Shown: positions 28,295-43,406 of the stretch, piece by piece | Layout of the letters: the number at the start of each line of letters is the position of its first letter | Position numbering within the stretch: the first letter of the stretch is position 1 | From: Thermococcus sp. JdFR-02 | Lineage (GTDB): Archaea > Methanobacteriota_B > Thermococci > Thermococcales > Thermococcaceae | Direction of reading: 5' to 3' | DNA length: 64,000 nucleotides | NCBI GenBank assembly: GCA_002009975.1 | Contig: MTLP01000009.1 | Location: 1-64,000, forward strand | Program-made: the position numbers and the translations under genes | Notes under the pieces: generated by a model | What the model was told of the DNA's origin: nothing | Database searches by the model: none | The model's input: only the letters and a program-made list of their open reading frames with translations

Positions 28295-28319
28295 TGAAAA
28301 CAAACTTGAGGTGGAAGAT

Positions 28320-28970
28320 ATGGTAGTGATAGGTGAAAGGTTTCCAGAGGTTGAGGTGACAACGACCCATGGAAAAATTAAATTGCCTGACTATTTTGTA
28401 GAAAAGGGAAAATGGTTTGTTCTATTTAGTCATCCAGCAGACTTTACACCTGTTTGTACAACCGAATTTTATGCTTTCCAGAGAAGATACGATAAATTTA
28501 AAGAACTCAATACTGAATTGATTGGTTTAAGCTTAGATCAAGTGTTCAGCCATCTTAAGTGGCTTGATTGGATTAAAGGAAATCTTGGGATTACTATTGA
28601 ATATCCCGTAATTGCAGATGTTTTGGGAAAGCTATCAGAAAAATTGGGCATGTTGACATTAGATAAGACACACACAGTTAGGGCTGTATTTATTGTTGAT
28701 GATAAAGGAATAATTAGAGCAATTTTCTATTATCCTCCAGAGGCTGGTAGGAATATAGATGAAATCCTTAGGACAATAAAGGCATTGCAGACAAGTGACA
28801 AATATGGAGTTGCAATTCCAGCAAATTGGCCAAACAATGAGCTAATTGGGGACAAAGTTATTGTTCCACCAGCAAGTTCACTTAAAAAGAAGAAGGAAAT
28901 AGAAGAAGCGAAGAATAAAGGAGAAGTTGAAGCTTTTGATTGGTGGTTTTCATTTAAGAAAATCAAATGA
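28320..28970 (+). CDS. Peroxiredoxin (Prx6-like), single-cysteine
   Basis: 216 aa thioredoxin-fold peroxidase reducing H2O2 and organic peroxides. The peroxidatic Cys46 is in DFTPVCTTE. It is the only cysteine in the protein. Archaeal Prx6-like homologues usually carry resolving cysteines in a C-terminal CxDWWFC-type motif; here it reads AFDWWFS. So it should act as a true 1-Cys enzyme. ATG 28320 follows GAGGTGG. First gene of the redox region, followed by a 2-oxoacid oxidoreductase. Confidence 0.94.
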
Positions 28971-29098
28971 TATCTTTTTTCTATTTTTACAATGTTTTAT
29001 TGCCTAATTCTCCTAGGTTTATAAAATAAAACTATATAAACCAAGTTAGTAAACCTTATTATAAAGAAATTCGAATTTTATAATTGGAGGATTGAACT

Positions 29099-30820
29099 AT
29101 GACTAAGCTGAAAGATGAGGTTTCTATTGTTTTGGGGGGAGCGGCTGGACAAGGAATTCAAACTGTTGAGGAGATTTTGACAAGAACCCTAAAACTTTCT
29201 GGATTTAACGTTTATGCAACAAAGGAATATATGTCAAGGGTTCGTGGTGGGGTAAACACTACGGAAATTAGGGTTTCTTCTAAGAGGGTTAGAGCTTTTG
29301 TGAGTAGAATTGATATTTTAATACCTTTTAAGAAAGGGGTTTTGGAATGGGTAAGCAACAGGCTCTCCAAGGAAACAATAGTAATTGGTGAAAAAGTAAA
29401 CATAGAAGAGGAATTTCTGGATAAAGTGAATCTCATTAAAGTACCATTTACTCAAATAGCAAAGGAAGTTGGTGGTGTGCTTTATCTTAATACGATAGCA
29501 GCAGGAGTTGTTGCGGGAATACTCAATGCTGATATGGAGGTTTTAAGGAGATACCTTAAAGAAAGATTTTCAGCTAAAGGAGAAAATATTGTACAAAGGA
29601 ATATTGAAGCTGCAATAAAGGGATATGAACTTGGAAGAGGATTATGCAAAGAGGGGAGAATAAGTGTAGAGATTCTGAAGAACGAAGAGGTAAAGAATGA
29701 AATTCTATTAAGTGGAACTGAAGCCGTTGCTTTGGGCGCTGTAGCTGGAGGCATGAATTTCTTGGCTTTTTACCCAATGTCGCCTTCTACTGGTGTCGCA
29801 GTTTTTGCTGCACAGCATGCAGATGAGTTTGAAATTGTAGTGGAACAGGTAGAAGATGAAATATCTGCTGCAAATATGGTAATTGGGGCATGGTTTGCTG
29901 GGGCAAGAGGAATGGTAACTACTTCTGGAGGAGGCTTTGCATTAATGAGTGAAGCTTTGAGCTTAGCTGGAATGGCTGAGAATCCGATTGTAATTCATCT
30001 TGCTCAAAGACCGGGTCCCGCAACAGGTTTACCGACAAGAACTATGCAGAGCGACCTGTTTTTAGCTTTACATGCCGGACATGGTGAATTTCCCAGAATA
30101 ATTTTCGCTCCTGGGACAATTGAAGATGCATTCTATCTAACCCAAAAGGCTTTTAACTTAGCTGACAAGTATCAAATTCCCGTAATAATCTTAACAGATG
30201 AATATTTGATGGATTCTTACTATAATCTTCCAGATATTAACTTGGAGAAAATAAGTTTCGAGGAATACATAATTAAGACAAAAGAAGATTATAAACGCTA
30301 TAAACTAACAGAGAATGGTATTTCCCCAAGAGGGATACCTGGATATGGGGAAGGCATAATTGTCGCAAACGGTAACGAACATGATGAATATGGAGATATC
30401 ACGGAAGATGAGGAGCTCAGCAAATTGATGCAGGAGAAAAGAAATAAAAAGTTAGAATTCATAAAAAGAGAGTCCATTCCTCCAGAACTTGTTGGAAGTG
30501 AAGAGTACAAGTATTTGATAATTGCTTGGGGATCTACATACTATGTTATTAAAGAAGCCCTTGAAAGGCTTAGAAGAAAGGACATTGCAATGCTTCATTT
30601 TAAGCAGGTGTATCCTTTAAGCGACAAAACAAAGGAATATTTGGAGAAAGCTAATGTAATAATCGATGTTGAGCTAAATGTTACAGCACAGTTTGCACAG
30701 CTCTTGAAGAGAGAATTTGGTGTTGATGTCCATTACAAGATTCTCAAATATAACGGCAGACCCTTCTCAGTTGAAGAAATTATGGAAAATCTTAAAGCTA
30801 TTTTAGGGGAGGGAGTGTAA
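29099..30820 (+). CDS. 2-oxoacid:ferredoxin oxidoreductase, fused gamma-alpha subunit
   Basis: 573 aa. The N-terminal gamma domain ([31 protein letters not shown]; residues 1-190) is fused to the alpha domain ([27 protein letters not shown] onward in pieces). With the beta subunit it oxidatively decarboxylates a 2-oxoacid to acyl-CoA, reducing ferredoxin. This fused architecture fits the XOR/2-oxoglutarate-type enzymes of Thermococcales, but the substrate cannot be read from sequence. TTTATAAAATAAAACTATATAAACC upstream (25 bases, two TATA-like elements at about 29021-29045) marks the promoter. Confidence 0.92.
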
Positions 30821-31695
30821 TGCCACTTGATTATAGACTTTTTCAATCTGAAAGACCAGGTTCTCAAGATATAGCTTGGTGTCCTGGTTGTGGGAACTTT
30901 GGCATTAGGAATGTTCTTATGCATGCCCTAGCTGAACTAAACATAATTCCTCAAAAGGTTGTCATAATTAGTGGCATTGGGCAAGCCGCAAAGATGCCCC
31001 ACTACATAAAGGTTCATGGATATCATACATTACACGGAAGATCAATCCCTATTGCCACTGCAGTAAAAGTGACGAATCCAGAGCTTACTGTTATTGCAGA
31101 AGGTGGAGATGGAGACATGTACGCAGAAGGTGGCAATCATTTACTCCATGGAATTAGGAGGAATCCAGATATTACGGTTTTAATTCACGACAATCAAATT
31201 TATGGTCTTACAAAAGGTCAGGCATCTCCAACTACTGTAATAGGAATGAAAACGCCTACTCAACCTTGGGGAGTTTTTGAAGAACCTATGAATCCAATAG
31301 CTCTAGCAATAGCCTTAGATGCTTCATTTGTTGCAAGAACATTTATAGGATTCATGAAGGAAACTAAGGAAATAATAAAACAGGCTATACAGCATAGAGG
31401 CTTTGCTATAGTTGATATATTCCAGCCATGTGTCTCATTTAACAAATTAAACACCTACGAATGGTATAGGGAACATACATATTTCATGAAAGATCACGAT
31501 CCTTATGATAGAGAAGAAGCGCTTAAGAGGGCTTTGGAGAAGGATCCGTTGCCATTAGGAGTGTTCTACATTAATGAAAAGCCAACATTTGAAGAGCTAG
31601 TGGTGGCTTATAAAAAGGACAAGAGACCATTATGGCAAAGAAAGCCAAAATTAGACAAGATAAGGGAAATGCTTGAACTAAAGAGAAGGCTTTAA
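30820..31695 (+). CDS. 2-oxoacid:ferredoxin oxidoreductase, beta subunit
   Basis: 291 aa thiamine-diphosphate-binding subunit. Seen: [13 protein letters not shown] (iron-sulfur/TPP region), [12 protein letters not shown], and the TPP-Mg motif [13 protein letters not shown]...[15 protein letters not shown] overlaps the stop of the gamma-alpha gene (TAATG), so the two subunits are made together. The beta subunit lacks a separate delta ferredoxin partner in the neighbourhood; electrons probably go to free ferredoxin. Confidence 0.93.
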
Positions 31696-31717
31696 ACGCA
31701 ATCAGCTGAAGGAGTTG

Positions 31718-32818
31718 ATGGGCGTGAAAGTCTTAATAATCGGAAATGGGATAGCTGGGGTTACCTTAGCTAAAGAACTCTCTAAGGACTTTGAAGTTAT
31801 TATTGTTGAGAGAGAAACACTTCCATATTACAACAAGCCAATGCTTAGTCACTATATTGCTGGACTGGTTGATGAGAAAGCCCTTTTTCCATATTCAAGG
31901 GAGTGGTATCTCAAAAATAGCATAAATCTTAATCTTGGAGTTGAAGCTAAGATTATAGACAGGGCAAGAAAAAAGCTGGTAACTTCCAAAGGCGAATTCA
32001 ATTATGATATTTTGGTTTTAGCCACTGGAGCAAGGGCAAGAGAGCCAGCGACTAAAGGAAAGGAACATCTAATGACACTTAGGACCTTTGAGGATGCTGA
32101 GAGAATAAAGAATATACTTGAAAATGAAGGTGAAGCTGTGATAATTGGTGGGGGTTTTATAGGTCTTGAGCTTGCAGGAAACCTTTCAAAAGTAGGTTAT
32201 GAGGTTAAGCTAATTCATAGGAGAGATACTTTTTTAGGGCTTGATGGGGAGTTAAGTAACATTATAATGCAGAAACTGGAAGAGTTTGGTGTTAGATTCT
32301 ATTTAAATACCAACCTTGTGAAAGCCGAGGAAAATGGAATTCAAACAGATAAAGGATATATTAAGGGAAAGCTTAAGATATGTGCGTTTGGTATAGTCCC
32401 AAATAGAGAACTTGCTGTAAGAAGCGGTATACATGCTGGAAGAGGGATTTTAATAGACGACCAATTTAGAACTTCTGCACAGAATATTTATGCAATAGGT
32501 GATTGTGCTGAGTATGGTGGTATTATATGTGGCACTGCTAAAGCATCTATGGAACATGCGCGAGTTTTAGCCAATATATTGAGGGGAAAAATGGATAGTT
32601 ATGACTTTAAATTCAGATCAACTATCTTTAAATTTGCAGACCTACCAATAGCAATAATAGGAAATACTAAAGGAGAAGGAGTCTGGATAGGAGACAATGT
32701 TAAAGTGTTTGTCGATGAAAACTTTGTTGCTGGTGCGGTTATTTTTGAAGATCTTAGGATGGTAAGCAAATTAGAAAAACTGATCAAGGATAAGATCACT
32801 ATTGACCAGCTTAGATAA
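31718..32818 (+). CDS. nror: NAD(P)H:rubredoxin oxidoreductase
   Basis: 366 aa FAD enzyme of the pyridine nucleotide-disulfide reductase superfamily. FAD motif [15 protein letters not shown] at the N-terminus, NAD(P)H motif [15 protein letters not shown] in the middle, and the second FAD contact [12 protein letters not shown]. It passes electrons from NAD(P)H to rubredoxin, which feeds superoxide reductase, rubrerythrin and flavodiiron protein; these lie directly downstream. ATG 31718 follows AAGGAG. Only 22 bp separate it from the oxidoreductase beta gene. Confidence 0.9.
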
Positions 32819-32921
32819 TTCTAACATTGATTTAAATACCAAACTTAAAAGTTTAGATATCGGAATTAATGGTTTATAAAATATAGTCCTAGATAGTGGA
32901 ACAAAAATCTTTTAAACTCTG

Positions 32922-32940
32922 ACATCGTATTATATGATGT
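32922..32940. promoter_or_regulatory. 19-bp palindrome over the rubrerythrin transcription start
   Basis: ACATCGTATTATATGATGT: arms ACATCGTAT and ATATGATGT match in 8 of 9 positions around a central T. It lies 6-24 bp after TTTTAAAC, so it covers the expected start site, and 23 bp before the ATG. A repressor site controlling rubrerythrin, rubredoxin and superoxide reductase is inferred. Confidence 0.5.
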
Positions 32941-32963
32941 AATTTCCCATTAGGTGATGGAAA

Positions 32964-33479
32964 ATGGTTGTTCAAAGGAAAATGACGAAGAAGTTTTTGG
33001 AAGATGCGTATGCAGGAGAAAGTCAAGCCCACATGAGGTATCTAATTTTTGCGGATGTTGCTGAAAAGGAAGGATTTCCAAACATTGCAAAGCTTTTTAG
33101 AGCTATAGCTTTTGCTGAACTTGTTCATGCGAGAAATCACTATGAAGCTCTCGGAAACGTAAAAGACACTGTAGAAAACTTGCAAGTTGCCATTGATGGA
33201 GAGACATTTGAAGTTGAAGAAATGTATCCAGTGTACAACAACACGGCAAAGCTTCAAGGTGAAAATGAAGCTGTTAGGAGCACACATTATGCCTTAGAGG
33301 CTGAAAAGATACATGCTGAGCTTTACAAGAAAGCAAAGGAATTAGCAGAGCAAAAGAAAGATATGGAAGTCAAGAAAGTTTACATATGTCCCGTATGTGG
33401 GTATACCGTTATAGACGAAGCTCCAGAATATTGTCCTGTTTGCGGTGCTCCAAGAGAAAAGTTTGTAGTTTTTGAATGA
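32964..33479 (+). CDS. rbr: Rubrerythrin
   Basis: 171 aa peroxide-scavenging diiron protein. The four-helix domain has [26 protein letters not shown] (ExxH) and [13 protein letters not shown] (ExxH). A C-terminal rubredoxin domain carries CPVCGY and CPVCGAP for one Fe. It reduces H2O2 to water using electrons from rubredoxin. AGGTGAT precedes ATG. Its last codons hold the Shine-Dalgarno of the rubredoxin gene, so rubredoxin follows as part of the operon. Confidence 0.97.
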
Positions 33480-33489
33480 GGTGATAGGA

Positions 33490-33654
33490 ATGGCAAAGTG
33501 GAAGTGCATGGTCTGTGGATACATCTATGACGAGGAGATAGGCGATCCAGAAAACGAAGTTTCTCCAGGCACAAAGTTTGAAGAATTACCAGACAATTGG
33601 GTGTGTCCACTCTGTGGTGCCCCAAAAGATATGTTTGAAAAGATTGAAGATTAG
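33490..33654 (+). CDS. Rubredoxin
   Basis: 54 aa single-iron electron carrier. Cys pairs [19 protein letters not shown] (first) and [11 protein letters not shown] (second) give the FeS4 site; [10 protein letters not shown] is diagnostic. ATG 33490 follows GAGGTGAT. It sits between its electron acceptors rubrerythrin and superoxide reductase and shortly after its reductase. Confidence 0.97.
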
Positions 33655-33663
33655 GTGGTTTAG

Positions 33664-34038
33664 ATGAAGAAGTTTGGAGAAATAATTTATACTCCCGAAT
33701 CTGAGGAAGATGCCGCATTGGCAAAGAGAGAAACCCACACACCGAAAATCGAAGCACCAGATGTTGTAAAGTCTGGTGAAGCCTTTGAAGTAAAGGTTAG
33801 TGTAGGTCCACATCCAAACACCGTTGAACACTCAATTAGGTGGATTGAAGTCTATTTCTATGAAGAAGGAAGACCTTATAACCCAATACTCCTCTCAAGG
33901 GTTCACTTTGAACCTGGCTATGCAGAACCTAAGGTTGTCTTAACGCTTAAGCTCAAGAAGAGTGGAGTAATTCACGCTCTAGAATACTGTAATTTGCATG
34001 GGCTCTGGGAGAATAGAAAGGAAATTAAGGTTGAGTGA
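33664..34038 (+). CDS. sorA: Superoxide reductase (neelaredoxin type)
   Basis: 124 aa, one-iron enzyme that reduces superoxide to H2O2 without making oxygen. Iron ligands: His of KRETHTPKIE, the two His of VGPHPNTVEHSIRWIEVYF, and the Cys/His of YCNLHGLW. The N-terminal desulforedoxin domain is absent, as in Pyrococcus. It starts 9 bases after rubredoxin, completing the NROR-rubredoxin-SOR chain. Confidence 0.97.
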   Translation: MKKFGEIIYTPESEEDAALAKRETHTPKIEAPDVVKSGEAFEVKVSVGPHPNTVEHSIRWIEVYFYEEGRPYNPILLSRVHFEPGYAEPKVVLTLKLKKSGVIHALEYCNLHGLWENRKEIKVE

Positions 34039-34096
34039 TTTTTTTCTTTACCATATCTTTTTTAAACTTTTGAAGTTATATTGGTTAGGTGGTCTT

Positions 34097-34426
34097 ATGA
34101 AAGTTTATGCAAGGGATAAAAAGTATCCACCCGAATATCAGGAAGTTTTAAAGGAGCTTGAAAATATAATTGATCCAATAAGCGGAGACAATATTTTAGA
34201 TGCAAATCTTTTAGCTGGATTGGAAGTTAATGATGACACATTGAAGCTTTGGTTAGCCTTTGAAAGCAACACATGTGATGCTATAATTGGTGGAGTTGCT
34301 GTTTCAAATTCACGCATTATCGGAAATATTATGGAGCGCTTTGCATTAGTTAAATTTCCGAGGGTTTACATTTATGATCTTCACAATAATGTTTTGGCAA
34401 AATTTGAGATGAAGGGTGAAAAATGA
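34097..34426 (+). CDS. DUF59/MIP18-like protein (first of a pair)
   Basis: 109 aa. It fits the DUF59 (MIP18) pattern LENIIDPISGDNILDANLLAGLEVND, in which the family's DP-x(n)-D-L region is kept. A single cysteine (NTCDAI) stands where iron-sulfur assembly homologues bind metal. AGGTGGT precedes ATG. The stop overlaps the next gene's ATG by 4 bp. A role in iron-sulfur or iron loading near these iron proteins is inference. Confidence 0.75.
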   Translation: MKVYARDKKYPPEYQEVLKELENIIDPISGDNILDANLLAGLEVNDDTLKLWLAFESNTCDAIIGGVAVSNSRIIGNIMERFALVKFPRVYIYDLHNNVLAKFEMKGEK

Positions 34427-34773
34427 AGCTGTTTTTAAGAGGTAAAAAGGAAGAAAAGCCTGAGCATAGGGAATTGCCTCCAGAGGTTAGAAGGGTTGCT
34501 GAGCTATTAAAGAAAGTTAAAGATCCAGAGACTGATTTAAATATAGTTGAGGAGGGGTTAGTTTACGGTCTAACAGTTGAAGGCAAAAAAGCTATGATAT
34601 GGCTCAACTTTGCTCGTTCAACGCCAATATGTAAATTCTGTCAGCCAATAGCTATTACCATCCAGAAGAGGATAGTTAGAGATGTTATTTCAGTTCTTGA
34701 GAAAGAGGGATTTAATGAAGTTGAGATATATAATGAGATAGGGCTCCTGCTTGAAAAATGGGGAAAGGAATAA
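34423..34773 (+). CDS. DUF59/MIP18-like metal-sulfur cluster assembly protein
   Basis: 116 aa. After a basic N-terminus (RGKKEEKPEHRELPPE), the DUF59 fold shows LLKKVKDPETDLNIVEEGLVYGL, the family signature. Two cysteines (PICKFC) lie at the usual active position. Paralogue of, and coupled to, the preceding gene (ATGA overlap); a heterodimer is plausible. Followed by convergent ferritin-like genes. Confidence 0.8.
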   Translation: MKLFLRGKKEEKPEHRELPPEVRRVAELLKKVKDPETDLNIVEEGLVYGLTVEGKKAMIWLNFARSTPICKFCQPIAITIQKRIVRDVISVLEKEGFNEVEIYNEIGLLLEKWGKE

Positions 34774-34796
34774 TCCAGAAAACTTGCATTAGTTCT

Positions 34797-35117
34797 TTAT
34801 ATCTCCTCTATATCATCAAGCTCAACCTTTACTCCCGTCATCTCTTCAACTTCTTCAAACCCATCTTTAAGTTCACGAACTTGCTCTGGATCAAGCTCTA
34901 GAAGTAGAGCCATAAACTCGCCAACATGGGCTTTTTCTTCCCTTGCCACATCTAAAAAGACTTTCTTAATTCTCTCATCTTCTGTAAGTCTTGCCATTTG
35001 TTCATAAAGACTTATGGCATCGAGTTCAGCTATAATTGCCAATCTCAAGGCTTCCATAAGCTCTTCCTTAGAATAAGGTTTATCCCTATTGATCAGAGTA
35101 GGGTTTATTGCTAGCAT
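34797..35117 (-). CDS. Stand-alone encapsulin-type ferritin-like protein (EncFtn-like)
   Basis: 106 aa. NPTLINRDKPYSKEELMEAL, AELDAISLYEQMA and VAREEKAHVGEFMALLLELDP match, as I recall it, the N-terminal ferritin-like domain of the P. furiosus encapsulin (PfV particle). Iron ligands Glu of AELDA and ExxH of EEKAHVGE are present. In Pyrococcus this domain is fused to the HK97-fold shell. Here translation stops right after the domain (ELDDIEEI) and no shell gene follows. GGTGAT precedes ATG. A role as iron-oxidising cargo is inferred. Confidence 0.85.
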   Translation of the reverse strand: MLAINPTLINRDKPYSKEELMEALRLAIIAELDAISLYEQMARLTEDERIKKVFLDVAREEKAHVGEFMALLLELDPEQVRELKDGFEEVEEMTGVKVELDDIEEI

Positions 35118-35192
35118 AAAATCACCATTAAATGTTCAACTTTCGACCTAATAAAGTTTGCTAATCAAAAAATAAAACTTACTTTTAAAACC

Positions 35193-35669
35193 TTAGTCAA
35201 CTTCTAAGCTAAAATCCTGATAATCCATCCAAATACCAGTTTTTGAAACAGAATCATACTGTGCTTTAAGCAAATTATAATGGGCTTCTTCAACTTTAGC
35301 TAATTCCCTGAAAATCCTCTTTACTTTTTCATCTTCCACATCTTCCGATGCTTTTTCATAAAATTCCCAAGTTAGCTTTTCTTGTTGCATTCCAATTTCT
35401 ACTGCTTTTATTTCACTGATCTCACCTTCAAACTTTGGGGTGAGCTTTTCAACTATTTCTTTATTCATTTCCGGCTTTTTACCAAGTTCTGCAACCTTCT
35501 CTATTAGCTTTTTTTCAAATTCGTCCCAGTGACCTGCTTCTTCATTTGCCAAGAAGAGGAACATTTTCTTTGCTCTTTCATCTCTTGTCTTCTTTGCAGC
35601 TTCAATGTAAAACCTTAGCTCTGCTTTTTCCACCTCCAAGGCTGTTGCTAAAATTTTGAGTTCTTTCAT
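35193..35669 (-). CDS. Ferritin-like (rubrerythrin-type) diiron protein without rubredoxin domain
   Basis: 158 aa four-helix bundle. ALEVEKAELRFYIEAA and ANEEAGHWDEFE (ExxH) form one half; IGMQQEKLTWEFYEKA and AKVEEAHYNLL (ExxH) form the other, giving a complete carboxylate-bridged diiron site. It lacks the C-terminal FeS4 domain. GGTGAT precedes ATG. It may act in peroxide reduction or iron storage; it lies beside the EncFtn-like gene, on the same strand. Confidence 0.85.
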   Translation of the reverse strand: MKELKILATALEVEKAELRFYIEAAKKTRDERAKKMFLFLANEEAGHWDEFEKKLIEKVAELGKKPEMNKEIVEKLTPKFEGEISEIKAVEIGMQQEKLTWEFYEKASEDVEDEKVKRIFRELAKVEEAHYNLLKAQYDSVSKTGIWMDYQDFSLEVD

Positions 35670-35762
35670 ATTATCACCAAATTAATCTTTGGTTTTAAGA
35701 TAGAAATCCTTTTTGGAAGCAATGGATTTAAAGTGGAAGGATCAAATTTTAACGGTGTTGTC

Positions 35763-36551
35763 ATGAGTCTTGATAGGTTCATTGGAATTAAACCAAAGAA
35801 AGATGAAGGGAAAATTGAAGTTCTAAAAAATCTCCTCAAAGACATTGGTATTGAAGGAGCACGCATTATAGAGGAAAAGGTTGACCAACAGTTTAAGGCA
35901 TTAGAGTATCTGCATAAAAACTTACAAAATAATGAACTTTTCATAAAACTCGTAATTGCAAATGCTTTAGTCAGCTATCAGCTTTCATCAACTGGTGAAA
36001 ATTGGTGGTGGGAGTTTTCAGAATATTTCTCAAAAAAGAGGAAAATCAGCATATATCAAGCTTACAAAGAATTTTTGCCGAGTTCAAAAACAAATAAAAG
36101 ATTAGTTAATGTAAAGTTAAGTCGTCTGGAGAAGGTTAACTCCTTTCTGGAGGGCTTGACTTTAGATGAATTGAAAGCTTATTATCAAAACATGCTTAAA
36201 TTGAACCTTGATCTTGCAAATATTTTGAATGCTGACAAACGTGCTAAAACAATAGTTTTTGCTGTAAAAATGTTTGGCTATGCTTCGAGGATAGTCTTTG
36301 ATGATTTTATCCCATATCCAATGGAGATAGCCATTCCAAAGGATGTTAGGATTAGCAACTATACAAAACGCTTTACGAGTGAAGATCCAACGGGTTTTTG
36401 GAATATGATTGCAAGGGATGTTAAAATTCCTCCTCTTCACATAGATTCGATACTTTGGACTGCATTGGGAAGAGATGAGAGGATTAAGCGTGATTTGAAA
36501 ATATATTTGGGTGAAAAAGCTGAAAAAGTCTTAAAGCTTGTAAATTTATAG
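35763..36551 (+). CDS. Archaeal 8-oxoguanine DNA glycosylase/lyase (AGOG)
   Basis: 262 aa HhH-superfamily enzyme of the AGOG type, removing 8-oxoguanine and nicking the abasic site. Features typical of AGOG: LVIANALVSYQLSSTGENWWWEF near residue 70 in pieces, KRLVNVKLSRLEKVNSFL, and NADKRAKTIVFAVKMFGYA with the candidate catalytic Lys, followed by PYPMEIAIPKDVRISNYTKR. ATG 35763 follows GGTG; GTG 35733 would add ten residues. Its place among oxygen-defence genes fits repair of oxidised guanine. Confidence 0.85.
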   Translation: MSLDRFIGIKPKKDEGKIEVLKNLLKDIGIEGARIIEEKVDQQFKALEYLHKNLQNNELFIKLVIANALVSYQLSSTGENWWWEFSEYFSKKRKISIYQAYKEFLPSSKTNKRLVNVKLSRLEKVNSFLEGLTLDELKAYYQNMLKLNLDLANILNADKRAKTIVFAVKMFGYASRIVFDDFIPYPMEIAIPKDVRISNYTKRFTSEDPTGFWNMIARDVKIPPLHIDSILWTALGRDERIKRDLKIYLGEKAEKVLKLVNL

Positions 36552-36562
36552 GTGGTGGTTTT

Positions 36563-37102
36563 ATGAAGATTGAAAGGATTCAATACCCACCATCCTTAAA
36601 GGATGAGCTTTTAAGATTCGTTTTTAGGGTTTATCAGGGTACTAATGGAGCATATCCAGCTTTAGAATGGGTTGAGAAAAAGCCAAGCATCGATGACTTT
36701 GAAGGATTTAAAAGGGTTTATGAACCTTTTTTAGAATTCAGGCTTGGAAAAGAATTTGATGAGCTCTATGTAGGATATGAGGAGAAAATTATTGGGACAA
36801 TAGCTTTGGTTTATAAATTCGAAGGAAAGGATATTTACTGGGTTCCAGAGGAGCTTAAAAATGAGAAAGTTGGTTTAATTGAGTTCTTCATGGTCGATCC
36901 ACTCTATAAGGGGAGGGGTTATGGTTCAAAGCTTTTGGATTTTGCAATTAAAAGGCTTGGAGAATTAAACAGAGAAGCATATTTGATAACGTTCAAGCAT
37001 TTGGAAGCCTATCAATACTATTTAAGGAAAGGTTTTGAGGAGGTAATGGAGTATAAAGAATTTGTTGTCCTAAAATTCAAAAAAAGGAAGCTCAAAAATT
37101 GA
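36563..37102 (+). CDS. GNAT-family N-acetyltransferase
   Basis: 179 aa. The C-terminal half carries the acetyl-CoA loop (LYKGRGYGSKLLDFAIKRL) after the strand LIEFFMVDP, then YLRKGFEEVMEYKEF, typical of GNAT proteins. The N-terminal half (YPPSLKDELLRFVFRVYQG) is less conserved. Acceptor unknown. GGTGG precedes ATG; only 11 bp follow AGOG, so co-transcription is likely. It overlaps the convergent ferritin-like gene by 11 bp. Confidence 0.85.
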   Translation: MKIERIQYPPSLKDELLRFVFRVYQGTNGAYPALEWVEKKPSIDDFEGFKRVYEPFLEFRLGKEFDELYVGYEEKIIGTIALVYKFEGKDIYWVPEELKNEKVGLIEFFMVDPLYKGRGYGSKLLDFAIKRLGELNREAYLITFKHLEAYQYYLRKGFEEVMEYKEFVVLKFKKRKLKN

Positions 37103-37616
37103 AGTTTATTTCTTTCATTAATTGTTCATAAAATTCCTCTTTATAGACATCTGGATATTGCATTATATACTCATATTGCTTCTTTAGGATATTGTAGTGA
37201 TTGACTTCCATATCTGCAAGCATGTTGAGGAGGAGTTTTGTTTCTTCATTTGCGGCGAATTGAGATAACTCTCTATACAAAGTTTCACTTGCTTTTTCAG
37301 CTTGCATGGCTATTTCATAAACTTCATCAAGGTTTAAATCCTGTTTACTAACTACTTCTGCCATTTTCTCTGTTATAACCTTAAATTCACCCATCGCTTT
37401 TAATTCAATCATCACTGGTTCTCTTTCTCTACTTCCAAACCTTTCCATCATTCTTTTAATTATTTGTTTATGTTTATCCTCTTCTTTAGCCAGAAATAGA
37501 AGCTCATCTCTTATAATATCACTTTTTGTCAAAGAAGCCATTTTTTCATAAGCTTCTTTTGTTCTGATCTCGGCATTTAGGGCAATATCAAAAACTTCAG
37601 CATCAGAGATTTTCAT
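37092..37616 (-). CDS. Ferritin-like (rubrerythrin-type) protein
   Basis: 174 aa. NAEIRTKEAYEKMA and AKEEDKHKQIIKRM (ExxH) form the first helix pair; MQAEKASETLYREL and ADMEVNHYNILKKQ (ExxH) form the second, with a C-terminal extension. No rubredoxin domain. The full diiron ligand set is kept. ATG 37616 follows GGTGA. Peroxidase or iron-handling function is inferred from family and location. Confidence 0.83.
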   Translation of the reverse strand: MKISDAEVFDIALNAEIRTKEAYEKMASLTKSDIIRDELLFLAKEEDKHKQIIKRMMERFGSREREPVMIELKAMGEFKVITEKMAEVVSKQDLNLDEVYEIAMQAEKASETLYRELSQFAANEETKLLLNMLADMEVNHYNILKKQYEYIMQYPDVYKEEFYEQLMKEINFNF

Positions 37617-37836
37617 ACCAGTCACCATAGTTTTATATTAACTTAGACATATTAATATTTTTGGGAATAGCAGTTGTATTTGTAAGTTCCAGAGTGCTGC
37701 ATTTCTGTTTTTAGAGATTTTTTGGTTTTTTGAGACTTCATTCAATGTTTGCATGTTTCCCAGAAAAGGTTATATATTGAAATATTTCTATTTGAAATGT
37801 TAGAGAACAATAATGTATTTCAAGGAGAGTGATATT

Positions 37837-38541
37837 ATGACCCGTATTTCTACGGGAATAGAAGGTTTGGACAAGATGCTTAAAGGTGGTTTAATCCCTG
37901 GGAGGTCTTACCTTATAAAGGGCGGTCCTGGAACCGGTAAGACCACCTTAGCTATTCACTTCTTAATGGAAGGTATAAAAAATGGTGAAAAAGTGCTGTA
38001 TATAACCCTTGAAGAGCCATTGGATATCCTCAAGCAAGATATGAAAAAGCTGGGCTTTGATATTGATAATCCCCTTTTCATGGGAATTGATGCAACACCA
38101 GTTGGAGAGAGAACGCATATATTTGAAGGAACTCACTATGAAGAATTCGCAAAAAGTTTTGGCGAGCTTGTAAAAGCTATAAAGGAGAGGCTGGATACTG
38201 AGAAGTTTACAAGAGTTGTTATAGATCCGATAACTATGGTAAAGTTGACGATAGAGAACAAGCTTGAATATAGGCGGACGTTTATAGGCTTTTTAAAGGA
38301 TCTTGCAAAGTATAATGTTACGCTACTCATAACTTCCGAGCTTCATGAGACTGATCTTGAAGATTACTTAGTTAGCGGGGTAATAGAACTCAAAACGTAT
38401 GAAATTGCAGGAAAGGTTGTTAGGGGGATTAAAATCTTAAAATTTAGAGGGAGCTCATTTGATGAGCAGATAAGACCTTACAGGCTTACAGATAAAGGTA
38501 TTGAAATTTATAGTGAGGAGAATATATTTGTTGGGGATTAA
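37837..38541 (+). CDS. KaiC-like RecA-superfamily ATPase
   Basis: 234 aa single-domain KaiC-like ATPase. Walker A is GGPGTGKTT (about residue 26), the catalytic Glu pair is in ITLEEP, and the Walker B-like strand is RVVIDPITMV. ATG 37837 follows GTGAT; GGTTATATATTG near 37769 is the probable TATA box. The next three genes are packed against it. Related archaeal KaiC proteins act in signalling (for example FlaH); this one's role is unknown. Confidence 0.88.
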   Translation: MTRISTGIEGLDKMLKGGLIPGRSYLIKGGPGTGKTTLAIHFLMEGIKNGEKVLYITLEEPLDILKQDMKKLGFDIDNPLFMGIDATPVGERTHIFEGTHYEEFAKSFGELVKAIKERLDTEKFTRVVIDPITMVKLTIENKLEYRRTFIGFLKDLAKYNVTLLITSELHETDLEDYLVSGVIELKTYEIAGKVVRGIKILKFRGSSFDEQIRPYRLTDKGIEIYSEENIFVGD

Positions 38542-38543
38542 GG

Positions 38544-39146
38544 ATGGAGATTGGGATCCCAAAGCTTGATGAGCTGCTTGGGGAAATTGAGGAGGGCAAT
38601 ATTCTTTTACTCGAAACTATTGGAACTTTGGGGGAGGAAATAGTCCTTGAAATGCTAAAGAAAAATAAAGAAAATGCTGTCGCTTTTGTGACAAAGAAGA
38701 TGCGTGATGAATTCAAGAAAATTCCAGAGCTGGCTAATGTAAAATTAATAGTGCTTGGAGAAGACGTATTTCCAGAGGAACTTTATGCTATCTCCTTTAA
38801 ACTTAGAAATCTATTTGAAGGAGCTCACGTTGGATTTTTCCTTTTACACCCCCTTTTAGTTTTTCACCCTCCTACCACTGTTTACAAGTTCTTTTCGGAG
38901 ATTGCTTCAATAGTTCAGGAAAAGAAAGTAGTGCTAACTGCAATCATTGATAAGCGTCTTGTGGATGAGAGAACCCTTGCAATGTTTGAGAATTTAGCTA
39001 CATATGTCATTGATATTGTAGAGCTCATTCAAGGATTTAAGATCACAAGAGGATTAAGAATTAAAAAGTCTCCAAAAGGGAATACTGGATTTTATAAATT
39101 TGAGATTAGAGACGGGAAGATTGTTATAGGTGAGTTAATTGGATGA
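38544..39146 (+). CDS. DUF257-type KaiC-like protein lacking the P-loop
   Basis: 200 aa. The N-terminus (MEIGIPKLDELLGEIEEGNI) parallels that of the upstream KaiC (ISTGIEGLDKMLKGGLIPGR), but the nucleotide loop is lost: ETIGTLGEE replaces GGPGTGKTT. The later strand LTAIIDKRLVDE and a C-terminal GFYKFEIRDGKI also track the RecA fold. Known as a Thermococcales DUF257 protein; a non-catalytic partner of the KaiC is inferred. Starts 2 bases after the KaiC stop. Confidence 0.75.
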   Translation: MEIGIPKLDELLGEIEEGNILLLETIGTLGEEIVLEMLKKNKENAVAFVTKKMRDEFKKIPELANVKLIVLGEDVFPEELYAISFKLRNLFEGAHVGFFLLHPLLVFHPPTTVYKFFSEIASIVQEKKVVLTAIIDKRLVDERTLAMFENLATYVIDIVELIQGFKITRGLRIKKSPKGNTGFYKFEIRDGKIVIGELIG

Positions 39147-39768
39147 ATTTATGTATGTGGTTGTGCTCCTGCAGTTTGTGTTTCTGATAGGATTAGTTTA
39201 TACTCTCCGCATTGAGTTTATTTTGAATAGATACAGCAAGAAAGTGAAAATATTTGCCATTCTGCAGACTATTGGAAGCTGTCTACTGATTGTTGGGATT
39301 TTGGGTTATACCTCAATCACGTATCTGAGTCTTTTCTCTGCAAATAAGCTTTTCTTTATTCTCCTAACGTATATGGGAGCTGCAATTATGATGATACCGT
39401 GTAAATTCTTAAAGCTATTTAAAATAGACAAAGAATTTGTAGCTCAACTTGCTGTAATATTGGTGTTTATGATTTATGCATTCCTTGTTGGTACATCTTA
39501 CAGCGATATTTTCCTTGGAGCAATTGGTATCATTATAATATCCCTGATAAGATCCCTTATCTCAATACGTGCCTTATCAATATTTTTAAAAACTGCTCTT
39601 AGGTTAGCTTCTTGGTTGATAGTTGTTCAAACTTGGGTAAATCCATTAATTCCTGAGACTCCAGTTACATGTGAGCATTTTCTTGCCCTCTTCACTTATT
39701 TTATGAGTCTTCTTTTTTGGCAATACTCTGCAATTAGAATTCACAAGTGCATAAGGGGGTGGATGTGA
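39139..39768 (+). CDS. Polytopic membrane protein (about seven spans)
   Basis: 209 aa, almost wholly hydrophobic with about seven spans (VVVLLQFVFLIGLVYTL, ILQTIGSCLLIVGILGY, FFILLTYMGAAIMMIP, LAVILVFMIYAFLVG, GAIGIIIISLIRSLI and others). No transporter motif; the layout resembles membrane sensor domains. TTG 39139 has AGGTGAG four bases upstream; ATG 39151 is the alternative. It overlaps the previous gene by 8 bp and the next by 1 bp. Confidence 0.72.
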   Translation: MDEFMYVVVLLQFVFLIGLVYTLRIEFILNRYSKKVKIFAILQTIGSCLLIVGILGYTSITYLSLFSANKLFFILLTYMGAAIMMIPCKFLKLFKIDKEFVAQLAVILVFMIYAFLVGTSYSDIFLGAIGIIIISLIRSLISIRALSIFLKTALRLASWLIVVQTWVNPLIPETPVTCEHFLALFTYFMSLLFWQYSAIRIHKCIRGWM

Positions 39769-40358
39769 TGGGATGTTATTCTATTCATGATATCGCTGAC
39801 TTAATCTTTGGTGTTTTTATTCTCATGTGGTACTATTATAACAGAAAAATCGGAAGAAATATCTGGATAGCATTGATTGCTGGATTAATTTTCATTTTAA
39901 CATCACTTTTTTATAATTTTCTTGCTGAATACATCGTCGATATATTGGAATTTTCTGGCTCAGTCCTTTTCCTCTTTCTCTTTGCAAGATTTTTTGAAGA
40001 AACTATCACAGGAGGAAATATTATTAAAGAGGCAGTTGGGGTTTTAGTTATAGCGTTTCTCCTTTTTCTATTTGCCTACATGAAAGGTGTGCAAGGAGCA
40101 TACACTCTTGTACAAGCTGTCATTTTAACATGGATAGGACTTAAACTCTTTAGGAATATTGAGAGGTTTGATATGGGGGACAGAGCGATTTTGTCGCTTA
40201 TAATAACATTTTCTGTATCAAGTGGGGTGTCAAGGATTTTGGATTTGCTAATTCTAAGTGATTTCTTTTATTTTGGTGCAGTATTTCTTTTATTGCTCTC
40301 TATTAGTGAAAAGATGTACATTTCAATGCCGAGGCCTTCTAACTTTTTTAAACGTTAA
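39768..40358 (+). CDS. Polytopic membrane protein (about seven spans)
   Basis: 196 aa with about seven hydrophobic spans (IADLIFGVFILMWYY, IWIALIAGLIFILTSLFY, FSGSVLFLFLFARFF, AVGVLVIAFLLFLFAY and others), similar in layout to its upstream neighbour, so perhaps a diverged duplicate. ATG 39768 overlaps that gene's stop (TGATG). Last gene of the KaiC cassette; a membrane partner or sensor for the KaiC pair is inferred. Confidence 0.72.
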   Translation: MGCYSIHDIADLIFGVFILMWYYYNRKIGRNIWIALIAGLIFILTSLFYNFLAEYIVDILEFSGSVLFLFLFARFFEETITGGNIIKEAVGVLVIAFLLFLFAYMKGVQGAYTLVQAVILTWIGLKLFRNIERFDMGDRAILSLIITFSVSSGVSRILDLLILSDFFYFGAVFLLLLSISEKMYISMPRPSNFFKR

Positions 40359-40390
40359 TCTTAATTACCTAGAACATATTACTTTGTTTC

Positions 40391-40636
40391 ATGAACATTT
40401 TCATTCCTCTAATCGTTGGTGTAGTAACAGGCTATATATTCAGGGAAAAGCTAAAATACAACTTGGATAAACCCATGAGTGCAACTCTTCTATTCCTTAT
40501 ATTCTTCATGGGAGTAGAGGCTGGAAGAGTTGAGATAAAAGCCATGTCTCTCTTTGTAACCTCTATCATATTTGCCTTTTTCACAATATTGGGGAGCTTG
40601 CTTTTTTCTTTACTTTTGGGAGGGAAGCTAAGATGA
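40391..40636 (+). CDS. LysO-family exporter, N-terminal piece (DUF340)
   Basis: 81 aa with three hydrophobic spans: IFIPLIVGVVTGYIF, SATLLFLIFFMGVEAG and FVTSIIFAFFTILGSLLF. This corresponds to the N-terminal third of LysO/YbjE lysine exporters. The FFMGVEAG motif matches IIGLEIG in the partner. Its stop overlaps the next gene by 4 bp. In many bacteria both parts are one ~300-residue protein, so the exporter is split here. Confidence 0.8.
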   Translation: MNIFIPLIVGVVTGYIFREKLKYNLDKPMSATLLFLIFFMGVEAGRVEIKAMSLFVTSIIFAFFTILGSLLFSLLLGGKLR

Positions 40637-41217
40637 ACTTTCTTTATTTGGTTTTGATTTCACTTTTTGCAGGACTTTTAGTTGGCAAATACACATCCTA
40701 TGAATTTGGGGATTTGGCATTGTTAATGCTCTATCTCTTAATCTTCATAATTGGATTGGAGATAGGTAAAAGCAGAGGAGTGAAAAGAGAGATTAAGAAG
40801 CTTGGTAAAATAGCTTTGATCTTACCATTGGCAACCATCATTGGCTCTTTGCTTGGAGGAGCTTTTGCCTCTTTTTTACTTAGATTTCCATTGAAATGGG
40901 GAATAGCAGTTTCAGCGGGTTTTGGGTGGTACAGCTTAACGGGACCATTATTAGCAGCATTTTCGCCTATTTATGGTGTGATTGGATTTTTAGCTAACCT
41001 AACAAGGGAGATATTTACGATAATATTCTATCCTCTTGTTATAAAGAGGGTTCCAAAGGAATTGGCAGTTTCTATGGGTGGAGCAACAACTATGGATTCC
41101 ACTTTGCCAGTTTTAGTAAAGTTTGGAGGCAAAGAGATAACGATAATTGCCTTTATTCATGGATTCATTTTAACAGCTATAGCACCATTTTTAATATCAT
41201 TAATTGCACAGCTTTGA
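40633..41217 (+). CDS. LysO-family exporter, main piece (DUF340)
   Basis: 194 aa with about six spans, including LLIFIIGLEIGKSRGVKREI and the family hallmark AGFGWYSLTGPLLAAFSP. The later ANLTREIFTIIFYPL and GGATTMDSTLPVLVKFGG are also conserved in LysO. The known role of LysO is lysine or antimetabolite export across the cytoplasmic membrane. Translationally coupled to the 81-aa piece (ATGA overlap), presumably forming a heteromeric transporter. Confidence 0.85.
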   Translation: MNFLYLVLISLFAGLLVGKYTSYEFGDLALLMLYLLIFIIGLEIGKSRGVKREIKKLGKIALILPLATIIGSLLGGAFASFLLRFPLKWGIAVSAGFGWYSLTGPLLAAFSPIYGVIGFLANLTREIFTIIFYPLVIKRVPKELAVSMGGATTMDSTLPVLVKFGGKEITIIAFIHGFILTAIAPFLISLIAQL

Positions 41218-41288
41218 CAAGATGGAAACCATTAAATTTATAAATTCGAACATTTTAGTTTTATTTACAAACTATTGGAGGTGTTTGT

Positions 41289-41468
41289 ATGGATAATGAA
41301 GAATTGGTTTTGGAGGCTATGAAAAAAGCCGGAAAGCCTTTGAGGAGTAAAGAAATAGCGGAACTTACGGGTTTACCAAAGAAGGAAGTTGATAAAATAA
41401 TCAAGGTTCTTAAAAAAGAGGGCAAGATATCATCACCAAAGAGATGCTACTATGCTCCTGTGGAGTGA
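41289..41468 (+). CDS. Small winged-helix DNA-binding protein
   Basis: 59 aa: MDNEELVLEAMKKAGKPLRS then a recognition helix (IAELTGLPKKEVDKIIKVLK) and a short wing (GKISSPKRCYYAP). Compact wHTH, a probable transcription regulator. GGAGGTG precedes ATG. TTTATAAATTCGAACA (41237-41252) forms its promoter and shares TTCGAACA with the peroxiredoxin promoter. It ends at base 41468, adjacent to the convergent ferritin-like gene. Confidence 0.75.
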   Translation: MDNEELVLEAMKKAGKPLRSKEIAELTGLPKKEVDKIIKVLKKEGKISSPKRCYYAPVE

Positions 41469-42062
41469 TTATTGATCTCTTGTCTCTCTGTTTTTTAGTA
41501 ACTCTTTTAGAAGTTCTTGGAAATCCTGTTCTGCTTTGATCTTTTTATAGAACTCGTATTCGCTCTTAACAAACTTATAATGTTCTAGTTCATCCTCTGC
41601 AAGCTCTAAAAATATTCTTTTATGTACTGGATCGCGCATCTGTTTTTCTAAAAATGTGTAAACTTCTTTTGCAAGTCTTTCTGAATCCATAGCAGTCTCC
41701 AGCACATTCAAATAATCTCTCACTGTGTCTAACTTACAGTTACATTCTTCAAATGGTTTTATCCAAGTCTCAATATGGATTTCTGTGGGTCTTTCATTTG
41801 GAAAGAGCTCTTTGAATATCTGGGAAACCTTTTCATCATGAGATTTTTCAGTTTCAAGGAACTGTTTAAACTTATTTTTTAAATACGGCTCATCGATTTT
41901 CTTGTATAGGAAGGCATATAATCTTGTTGCATCCCTTTCCCCTTTTATTGCATAGCTGAGAATATCCTTGAGAGGCAATTTTGAAATTTTCTTTAAGGTC
42001 TCTCTTATTTTTTCCTCAGCCTCTCCCTCTTCCATAAAGTAATCTATAGGCTTTTTCTTCAT
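41469..42062 (-). CDS. Ferritin-like protein with rubrerythrin-type ligands
   Basis: 197 aa. IKGERDATRLYAFLYK and LETEKSHDEKVSQI (ExxH) form half one; ETAMDSERLAKEVYTFLE and AEDELEHYKFVKSE (ExxH) form half two. Flanking N- and C-terminal charged extensions and one CNCK cysteine pair lie between the halves. Closest in layout to the protein at 61340. GGTGA precedes ATG. Divergent from the flavodiiron protein gene, suggesting shared oxygen-related control. Confidence 0.82.
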   Translation of the reverse strand: MKKKPIDYFMEEGEAEEKIRETLKKISKLPLKDILSYAIKGERDATRLYAFLYKKIDEPYLKNKFKQFLETEKSHDEKVSQIFKELFPNERPTEIHIETWIKPFEECNCKLDTVRDYLNVLETAMDSERLAKEVYTFLEKQMRDPVHKRIFLELAEDELEHYKFVKSEYEFYKKIKAEQDFQELLKELLKNRETRDQ

Positions 42063-42205
42063 AATCTTTTCACCATATCACCCTTTGTGATAAAATAGTT
42101 TTTTTGATTTAAAACTTTTTGTTTGGCAGATTTAGACTAAAAATACTAAATTGCGGAGATCCCTATATTTTGGAGGTTATGTAAGAATAAAGCTTATAAA
42201 ATTTC

Positions 42206-42219
42206 ATGACACATGTCAT
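42206..42219. promoter_or_regulatory. ATGACA-N2-TGTCAT palindrome in the flavodiiron promoter
   Basis: ATGACACATGTCAT has perfect 6-bp arms around CA. It begins 3 bp after TATAAAAT (about 42195-42202) and ends just before the Shine-Dalgarno, so a bound protein would block initiation. Likely an operator for the flavodiiron gene; the regulator is unknown. Confidence 0.5.
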
Positions 42220-42233
42220 AATAGGTGATGAAA

Positions 42234-43406
42234 ATGATAGGGAGTTTTGAAGTGAAAAAGAACATTTATTGGGTTGGAACAATTGATCCAGCTAAGAAAG
42301 TGTTTGATCTAGTAATTGATTCTCCTTATGGAACAACCTATAACTCTTACTTAATTTTAGATGAAAAGAGGGTTCTTATAGACACTACAGAAGAAAAATT
42401 GGCTAAAGAGTGGCTTGAGAAAATTGAAAATGTCATTCCAGCTGAAGAAATAAATTATGTTGTCATTAATCACGTAGAGCCAGATCACAGTGCGGGTCTA
42501 AAGTTATTGCTAGAGAAGAATCCTAATGTTACGGTAATTGCAACACCTCAAGCGAAAATACTCTTGAAGGAGGTAGTTAATAGGGATTTCAATTTTATGC
42601 CAGCAAAAGATGGAATGGAGCTTAAAATAGGAAAAAGAACCCTGAAATTTATTCAAATGCCATTTTGGCATTGGCCCGAGACTATGATGACATATTTAGT
42701 TGAAGATAAGATTTTGTTCCCATGTGACGGCTTTGGTTCAAATTACTTTGAAGAGAGCTTCTTTTATAGCAAGATACAACAAAAAGAAACTTATTGGAGG
42801 GAGTTCTGGAAGTACTTTAGGTTTGTTTTGGCACCCTTTAGGAAATTCATAATTCAAGGTCTTGAGAAGCTTAAAGGATTAGAAATTGAGATGATTGCTC
42901 CATCTCACGGTGTCATTATAGACACAAGGGAAGGAATAGAAAAAGCTTTTGAGGTATATGAAGAGTTTTTGAAGAAGCCAAGGAATAAGATTATAATAGC
43001 TTATGCGAGTGCCCATGGAAACGTTGAGAAAATTGCAAAAGCTATTCATGAGGAAATCGGTGGAGAGCTTTTGGATTTAGCTTATGCAAGCAGAGAGGAG
43101 GTTTTAGAAAAGATCGATAGTGCCAAAGCAATATTCTTTGGAGCACCTACTTTGAACGGCATGACTGCGCCTCAGACTTTAGAGGCAATGATCCTCTTAG
43201 GTTTGACGCCTGATTGGAGGGGTAAGAGAATAGCTCTCTTTGGTTCTTATGGATGGAGTGGTGAAGGAATTCCACTTCTTGAAGAGGTTGCAAAGAAAAT
43301 GCGCTTGAAGCTCTATCAGCCCAGCTTTAGAGTAAAATTTGCTCCAAGTGAGGAAGAAATCGAGAAAGCCAAGAAATGGGCAAGGGCTTTTATTGAAACC
43401 CCTTAG
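42234..43406 (+). CDS. Flavodiiron protein (rubredoxin:oxygen/NO oxidoreductase, FprA-type)
   Basis: 390 aa. The metallo-beta-lactamase domain has diiron ligands NHVEPDHSAG (HxExD-H), FWHWPET (His), FPCDGFGS (Asp) and APSHG (His). A flavodoxin domain follows, with the FMN loop IIAYASAHGNVEKIA and AFFG...NGMTAP-type second loop. It reduces O2 to water (or NO to N2O) with electrons from rubredoxin. ATG 42234 follows AGGTGAT; GTG 42225 lies in that signal. Completes the rubredoxin-dependent oxygen defence. Confidence 0.94.
   Translation: MIGSFEVKKNIYWVGTIDPAKKVFDLVIDSPYGTTYNSYLILDEKRVLIDTTEEKLAKEWLEKIENVIPAEEINYVVINHVEPDHSAGLKLLLEKNPNVTVIATPQAKILLKEVVNRDFNFMPAKDGMELKIGKRTLKFIQMPFWHWPETMMTYLVEDKILFPCDGFGSNYFEESFFYSKIQQKETYWREFWKYFRFVLAPFRKFIIQGLEKLKGLEIEMIAPSHGVIIDTREGIEKAFEVYEEFLKKPRNKIIIAYASAHGNVEKIAKAIHEEIGGELLDLAYASREEVLEKIDSAKAIFFGAPTLNGMTAPQTLEAMILLGLTPDWRGKRIALFGSYGWSGEGIPLLEEVAKKMRLKLYQPSFRVKFAPSEEEIEKAKKWARAFIETP

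What the first reader, a model, noticed from the sequence alone, without database searches (positions are those of the whole stretch)
37837..40358. KaiC ATPase paired with a P-loop-less KaiC-like protein and two seven-span membrane proteins
Four genes overlap or nearly touch: an intact KaiC, a DUF257 protein that keeps the KaiC N-terminal pattern but has lost the Walker A loop, and two polytopic membrane proteins of similar layout. An active/inactive RecA-fold pair with membrane partners resembles a signal-transduction module and is, as far as I know, functionally undescribed.
Basis: partly seen in the sequence, partly recalled or inferred. Interest (0 to 1): 0.65.

Follow-up and report, generated by a model that had tools for sequence, protein, structure and literature searches.

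The report
KaiC redox-linked membrane signalling operon
Four overlapping genes in a heat-loving archaeon encode an ATP-burning KaiC protein, a dead KaiC look-alike and two membrane proteins; the set recurs in about a third of related genomes, often beside superoxide-detoxifying genes, so it is probably a membrane-to-cell relay for oxygen or redox stress.

Summary
The four-gene operon is real (37837-40358). KaiC keeps every catalytic motif. The second protein ("psi") is not Pfam DUF257; its sequence is nearest DUF835. AlphaFold2 gives it a confident KaiC/ArlH RecA fold (pLDDT 89, TM-score 0.74-0.83 to KaiC and FlaH structures). It has lost Walker A, Walker B and the catalytic glutamates, but keeps an invariant basic stretch where KaiC carries its lysine finger. 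TM1 is a confident seven-helix protein with no solved relative. TM2 is a separate polytopic family.

KaiC-psi is a conserved pair in Thermococcales (34 of 94 genomes). TM1-TM2 follow it in about two thirds of loci; TM2 is confidently found only there. New here: the operon sits in, or directly after, the NROR-rubrerythrin-superoxide reductase (SOR) cluster in 14 of 33 genomes, with three more 15-18 kb away. Free TM1-family copies lie within 2.5 kb of SOR in 43 of 47 cases.

Best reading: a membrane redox/oxygen-stress relay in which psi couples the membrane proteins to a KaiC ring. Active/inactive KaiC signalling hubs are already proposed, so this is a new variant. Input, interactions and output are inferred, not shown.

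The parts
37768..37780 (+). putative archaeal BRE/TATA element (GAAAAGGTTATATATTG region)
   Evidence: Read from the sequence. AT-rich boxes (TTTATTAG) also precede kaiC in most of the SOR-adjacent loci L071-L086. By eye, not tested.
37837..38541 (+). KaiC: single-domain KaiC-family ATPase, 234 aa
   Evidence: PF06745 1.1e-49. Walker A GGPGTGKTT, EE59-60, D130, K202/R204 conserved in 29 orthologues. SD GGAG upstream of ATG 37837.
38544..39146 (+). psi: P-loop-less KaiC-fold protein (inactivated KaiC, 'iKaiC'), 200 aa
   Evidence: AF2 pLDDT 89, pTM 0.88. Foldseek to FlaH 4yds and KaiC, TMq 0.74-0.83. No DUF257 match.
39139..39768 (+). TM1: seven-helix membrane protein, 209 aa, TTG start, predicted N-out/C-in
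   Evidence: AF2 pLDDT 89, seven helices. No Pfam or PDB relative. Family in 60/94 Thermococcales, free copies next to SOR.
39768..40358 (+). TM2: polytopic membrane protein, 196 aa
   Evidence: No significant Pfam family. Confidently found only in operon-bearing genomes.
31715..32818 (+). context: NAD(P)H:rubredoxin oxidoreductase (NROR)
   Evidence: PF22353 PF1197-like_C 1e-20
32964..33479 (+). context: rubrerythrin
   Evidence: PF02915 + PF21349
33664..34038 (+). context: superoxide reductase (neelaredoxin type)
   Evidence: PF01880 4.8e-34; the only SOR in the genome
37092..37628 (-). context: rubrerythrin/ferritin-like protein, divergent neighbour of kaiC
   Evidence: PF02915 3.5e-12
41469..42062 (-). 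context: ferritin-like protein
   Evidence: PF02915 6.6e-23
42225..43406 (+). context: flavodiiron protein
   Evidence: PF19583 + Flavodoxin_1; flavorubredoxin NF008887 1e-77, below its cut-off

Best explanation
A membrane-to-cytosol signalling relay for oxygen, superoxide or redox stress, built on a KaiC ATPase. TM1 and TM2 sit in the membrane and sense the input (inferred). psi is a KaiC-fold subunit that has lost the motifs for binding and hydrolysing ATP. It acts as the coupling subunit: it docks beside KaiC in a ring or dimer, offering the kept basic stretch (R172, K174, K175) to the neighbouring KaiC ATP site and so setting KaiC's ATPase or assembly state, and it links KaiC to TM1/TM2 (inferred). 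The KaiC nucleotide state is then read out onto the superoxide reductase/rubrerythrin programme (inferred). Shown here: the ORFs, the predicted RecA fold of psi, loss of its catalytic residues, conservation of the basic stretch, near-obligate KaiC-psi pairing, co-occurrence with TM1-TM2, and clustering with SOR-pathway genes. The stimulus, the physical contacts and the output are not shown.
For: KaiC immediately upstream of psi in all loci but one. psi fold RecA/KaiC, pLDDT 89, best PDB match FlaH/ArlH and KaiC. KaiC catalytic residues conserved, psi ones lost, R172/K174/P177 invariant and K175 kept as K/R in 31; psi K175 aligns with the KaiC finger lysine K202. TM2 confidently only with psi. 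Operon within 8.5 kb of SOR in 14/33 genomes, expected about 1% per genome, in at least two architectures: directly after Rbr-SOR (L071, L072, L074, L075, L080, L084-L086) and in the island behind ferritin-like/GNAT genes (window, L061-L063, L066, L073). Three more lie 15-18 kb away, behind the same island genes with other genes (including a histidine-biosynthesis-like run) in between. Free TM1-family copies within 2.5 kb of SOR in 43/47. The TM-less branch lies beside a CoA-disulfide-reductase-like gene.
Against: Half of the operons, including the window's closest relatives (L058-L060, 86% identical psi), are far from SOR. TM1 has no conserved His/Cys pair that would mark a haem or redox site. 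No output domain or transcription factor is fixed in the operon. KaiC-psi contact was not modelled. SOR exists in most Thermococcales without this operon, so it cannot be essential for SOR regulation. The SOR statistic ignores shared ancestry.
Confidence: 0.45

Rival explanations
1. A generic KaiC/inactivated-KaiC signalling hub whose input is not redox. The SOR neighbourhood is a convenient stress island and the module answers another envelope or nutrient signal.
For: Many operons are far from SOR. In the window lineage a lysine-exporter LysO pair follows directly. Thermococcales carry many KaiC, DUF835 and DUF257 genes in varied contexts.
Against: Repeated linkage to SOR in different arrangements, free TM1-family copies at SOR in 43/47, and redox oxidoreductase neighbours even in the TM-less branch.
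Confidence: 0.27
2. TM1/TM2 (and free TM1-family copies) are working parts of the detoxification system, for example a membrane channel, transporter or electron conduit, and KaiC-psi is an ATPase that gates or assembles them rather than a signal relay.
For: Free TM1-family copies lie in the SOR/FeS-assembly/ferritin cluster without KaiC-psi, so the membrane protein has a role of its own there. One locus has psi-TM1-TM2 without adjacent KaiC, next to a thioredoxin.
Against: No cofactor-ligand pattern in TM1. No transporter fold match. KaiC relatives are known as regulators, not transport motors (general knowledge).
Confidence: 0.18
3. psi is a decaying or structural remnant of a tandem KaiC with no regulatory role.
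For: Three genomes have broken KaiC ORFs (L085, L086, L090).
Against: psi is kept full length with thirteen invariant residues over sequences as low as 31% identical, next to the same KaiC type in nearly every locus.
Confidence: 0.05

Closest known systems
KaiC-like ATPase hubs with inactivated homologues (iKaiC) in archaea, Makarova et al. 2017 (cited in PMC5847659)
   Same: Active KaiC-family ATPase encoded with a catalytically dead KaiC-fold partner and putative input proteins.
   Different: Stand-alone psi family restricted to Thermococcales, two dedicated membrane families, link to SOR. The 2017 paper itself was not readable here, so whether it lists this operon is unknown.
DUF835 (PF05763) proteins of Thermococcales
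   Same: psi profile aligns over residues 15-150 (hhalign 90%). Most DUF835 proteins read here carry 2-7 N-terminal TM segments fused to the domain, a one-gene version of TM plus iKaiC.
   Different: psi is not fused to TM, keeps a C-terminal beta-hairpin with KKSP that the DUF835 domain lacks, and the window psi is below the Pfam cut-off.
DUF257 (PF03192)
   Same: Co-linear weak profile match (hhalign 28%, E 6e-4) and a shared C-terminal K-S-(P) motif.
   Different: No Pfam match for the window protein; separate family.
ArlH/FlaH of the archaellum
   Same: Best structural match to psi (4yds); a single KaiC-fold subunit that works with a polytopic membrane protein (the latter from general knowledge).
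   Different: The solved ArlH/FlaH binds ATP (4yds is its ATP complex); psi lacks the Walker A motif.
Cyanobacterial KaiC
   Same: KaiC-family catalytic core.
   Different: Single domain; no clock equivalogue score.

Membership tests
KaiC family ATPase (PF06745), for gene 1 | profile score over cut-off and intact Walker A, catalytic Glu, Walker B | tested here: met
   169 bits vs 26.6; residues conserved in 29 orthologues
Circadian KaiC | double-domain KaiC / clock equivalogue score | tested here: not met
   PRK09302 129 vs 408 bits, circ_KaiC 86 vs 546 bits; 234 aa single domain
DUF257 (PF03192), for psi | score over Pfam cut-off (25 bits) | tested here: not met
   no match at E<=1; 8/31 members weakly, best 0.0049
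DUF835 (PF05763), for psi | score over Pfam cut-off (33.1 bits) | tested here: not met
   window psi 16.8 bits; relationship supported by hhalign 90% and 26/31 matches at E<=1
Inactivated KaiC-like protein (iKaiC), for psi | RecA/KaiC fold | tested here: met
   AF2 plus Foldseek TMq 0.74-0.83 to KaiC/FlaH
Inactivated KaiC-like protein (iKaiC), for psi | loss of P-loop and catalytic residues | tested here: met
   no K-T in the loop, Walker B Asp replaced in most members
Inactivated KaiC-like protein (iKaiC), for psi | no ATPase activity or ATP binding | not testable with these tools
   needs biochemistry
Membrane signal-transduction module | physical KaiC-psi-TM contacts and signal-dependent output | not testable with these tools
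Rhodopsin/GPCR-like or other known 7TM family, for TM1 | significant sequence or fold match | tested here: not met
   no Pfam match of note in 30 members, each family hit by one member only, no PDB sequence match, best Foldseek E 0.32, TM<=0.43 in the rows shown
Known anti-phage defence system | PADLOC profile match beyond generic P-loop | tested here: not met
   psi, TM1, TM2 none; KaiC only weak P-loop hits

The most novel reading that the evidence does not exclude
A dedicated archaeal oxygen/superoxide sensor in which two membrane proteins of new families act through a nucleotide-free RecA-fold subunit that lends its lysine finger to a partner KaiC ATPase: a KaiC hub with an assigned stimulus, and an active/dead RecA heteromer used as a switch.
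Probability: 0.27. Interest if true: 0.78.

Novelty: new variant of a known kind. Interest (0 to 1): 0.56.

Why it matters
Archaea carry many KaiC-like ATPases and dead homologues, yet few have a known signal. Here one active/dead pair is tied by genomic position to a defined pathway (NROR-rubrerythrin-SOR) and to two membrane families without names. That turns the open question of what KaiC hubs sense and control into a direct knockout experiment in a Thermococcales strain. It would also suggest how strict anaerobes, for which few O2 sensors are known, register oxygen.

Tried and rejected
1) DUF257 label for psi: rejected by Pfam. 2) TM1 and TM2 as duplicates of one family: early iterated searches cross-hit, but clean profiles show no similarity at E<=10, nor does hhalign. 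3) A conserved TM1 C-terminal [R/G]-W-[L/M] tail, in 22 of 23 operon copies by the pattern used and no free copies, looked like a docking motif. It is confounded: in most loci the same nucleotides encode the TM2 start in another frame (ATGG... gives W), so I do not use it. 4) psi-TM1 'fusion' in L086: this genome also has a KaiC split into three frames, so the fusion is likely a frameshift. 5) TM domain of DUF835 fusions as a homologue of TM1/TM2: no hhalign support. 6) Defence system: no PADLOC support. 7) Finding psi by pattern scan with a single sequence failed; whole-genome searches worked. 8) Literature: no held paper mentions KaiC, superoxide reductase and Thermococcus together; Makarova 2017 is not held.

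Full report
WHAT IS THERE. Reading 36.5-42 kb on both strands gives four plus-strand genes: kaiC 37837-38541, psi 38544-39146, TM1 39139-39768 (TTG start) and TM2 39768-40358. Gaps and overlaps are +2, -8 and -1 nt, the layout of a translationally coupled operon. A TATA-like element and a GGAG ribosome site precede kaiC (by eye).

KAIC. Pfam PF06745 at 1e-49. It matches no NCBIfam KaiC equivalogue above cut-off, so it is a divergent archaeal single-domain KaiC. In 29 orthologues the Walker A lysine, the EE pair, the Walker B aspartate and the finger residues K202/R204 never change. That the finger acts in trans on the neighbour's ATP is general knowledge of KaiC/RecA.

PSI IS A DEAD KAIC, NOT DUF257. 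The window protein matches no Pfam family above cut-off; 26 of 31 relatives touch DUF835 and 8 touch DUF257. Profile comparison gives DUF835 90% (E 2e-6), DUF257 28% (E 6e-4, co-linear) and KaiC itself P 0.025 only, but co-linear from the N-terminal 'GIxxLDxxL' to the C-terminal 'RGIxIxK'. AlphaFold2 on 31 homologues gives pLDDT 89 and pTM 0.88. Foldseek finds FlaH/ArlH, KaiC, PH0186 and PH0321 with E down to 2e-11 and TM 0.74-0.83. The P-loop is replaced by ETxGxLG, the column next to Walker B holds H/Q in 25 of 31 members (D in six of the most divergent), and the EE pair is gone. R172, K174 and P177 are invariant and K175 is K or R in all 31. The hhalign alignment puts psi K175 on KaiC finger lysine K202; the KaiC arginine R204 becomes proline. 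psi therefore looks unable to bind ATP but able to reach into a neighbour's site (inference). DUF835 is labelled an inactivated KaiC domain by Galperin et al. (PMC5847659).

MEMBRANE PROTEINS. TM1 is modelled as seven helices with pLDDT 89; loop charges suggest N-out/C-in. It has no Pfam or PDB sequence relative and no fold match better than E 0.32 and TM 0.43. TM2 is a second polytopic family with no detectable relation to TM1 and no significant Pfam match.

CO-CONSERVATION. psi occurs once or twice in 34 of 94 Thermococcales genomes in five of six genera, at 31-86% identity, and nowhere else full length in 115 genomes of the phylum. KaiC sits directly upstream in every locus but one (L077, where psi-TM1-TM2 follow a thioredoxin gene); in L068, L085, L086, L090 and L091 the KaiC reading frame is truncated by the contig end or broken. 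TM1-TM2 follow in 24 of 35 loci. TM2 appears with confidence only in psi-bearing genomes (one further weak hit, E 1e-4, also in a psi-bearing genome). A tree of psi needs two changes to explain TM absence: a deep TM-less clade of six and a recent loss in three. A close KaiC paralogue (about 50-60% identical) in some 50 Thermococcus genomes has no psi neighbour in the nine loci inspected. The KaiC-psi pair is therefore the core and TM1-TM2 a usual extension.

FUNCTIONAL CONTEXT. The window operon lies inside an oxygen-defence island: peroxiredoxin 28311, NROR 31715, rubrerythrin 32964, SOR 33664, two FeS-assembly (DUF59-type) genes, four ferritin-like/rubrerythrin genes, the 8-oxoguanine glycosylase AGOG 35733 and a flavodiiron protein 42225. 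Across genomes SOR (PF01880, nearly always one copy) is within 8.5 kb of psi in 14 of 33 genomes that have both. A naive binomial gives about 1e-20, which overstates significance because genomes are related. The arrangement differs between lineages, however: operon directly after Rbr-SOR with 85-163 bp between in the intact cases, or after SOR-FeS-ferritin-GNAT. Three more (G026, G039, G041) show the same island with other genes, including a histidine-biosynthesis-like run, between it and KaiC-psi. TM1-family copies not linked to psi are within 2.5 kb of SOR in 43 of 47 cases, and in L072, L075, L084 and L086 such a copy sits in the same array as the KaiC operon. In the TM-less clade a CoA-disulfide-reductase/NADH-oxidase-like flavoprotein gene lies just upstream of KaiC, directly or within a few genes, in the loci with enough upstream sequence. 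All of this points to redox or oxygen stress as the pathway.

MECHANISM. I commit to a membrane redox relay: TM1/TM2 as receptors, psi as the dead ring subunit that couples them to KaiC and completes or blocks its ATP site, KaiC as the switch. Predicted fold, residue loss and retention, and gene linkage are shown. Stimulus, contacts and output are inferred. Rivals are a non-redox hub and a transport/electron-conduit role for TM1/TM2.

NOVELTY. The class (KaiC hub with inactivated partner) is already proposed. The specific psi family, the two membrane families and the SOR link were not found in the held literature, but the key 2017 paper could not be read.

Noticed in passing
window 28311-43406: Large oxygen-defence island (Prx, 2-oxoacid:ferredoxin oxidoreductase, NROR, Rbr, SOR, FeS assembly, four ferritin-like/rubrerythrin genes, AGOG, FDP).
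   Followed up: partly
window 40391-41217: Lysine exporter LysO encoded as two overlapping genes directly after TM2, in the same order in related loci (L061-L063, L065, L066, L073, L091).
   Followed up: no
L077 2042-4347: psi-TM1-TM2 without KaiC, downstream of a thioredoxin-like gene, in a genome that also has the full operon.
   Followed up: partly
L085, L086, L090: KaiC reading frame broken (in-frame stop or frameshifts) next to intact psi; pseudogene or assembly error not resolved.
   Followed up: no
L072 5584-8666 and L075 5584-8680: Tandem arrays of five TM1/TM2-type membrane genes after KaiC-psi.
   Followed up: partly
G000 C2:21915-23427 and C8:85951-88712: DUF835 next to DUF257 genes in the same genome, possibly another membrane/inactive-KaiC pairing.
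   Followed up: no
L195-L197: A histidine-biosynthesis-like gene run lies between the SOR island and KaiC-psi in three Thermococcus genomes that lack TM1-TM2.
   Followed up: no
L152-L171: Free TM1-family copies mostly end in QE(G/S)L and often sit between SOR and the two FeS-assembly genes; a membrane protein of the SOR cluster with no name.
   Followed up: partly
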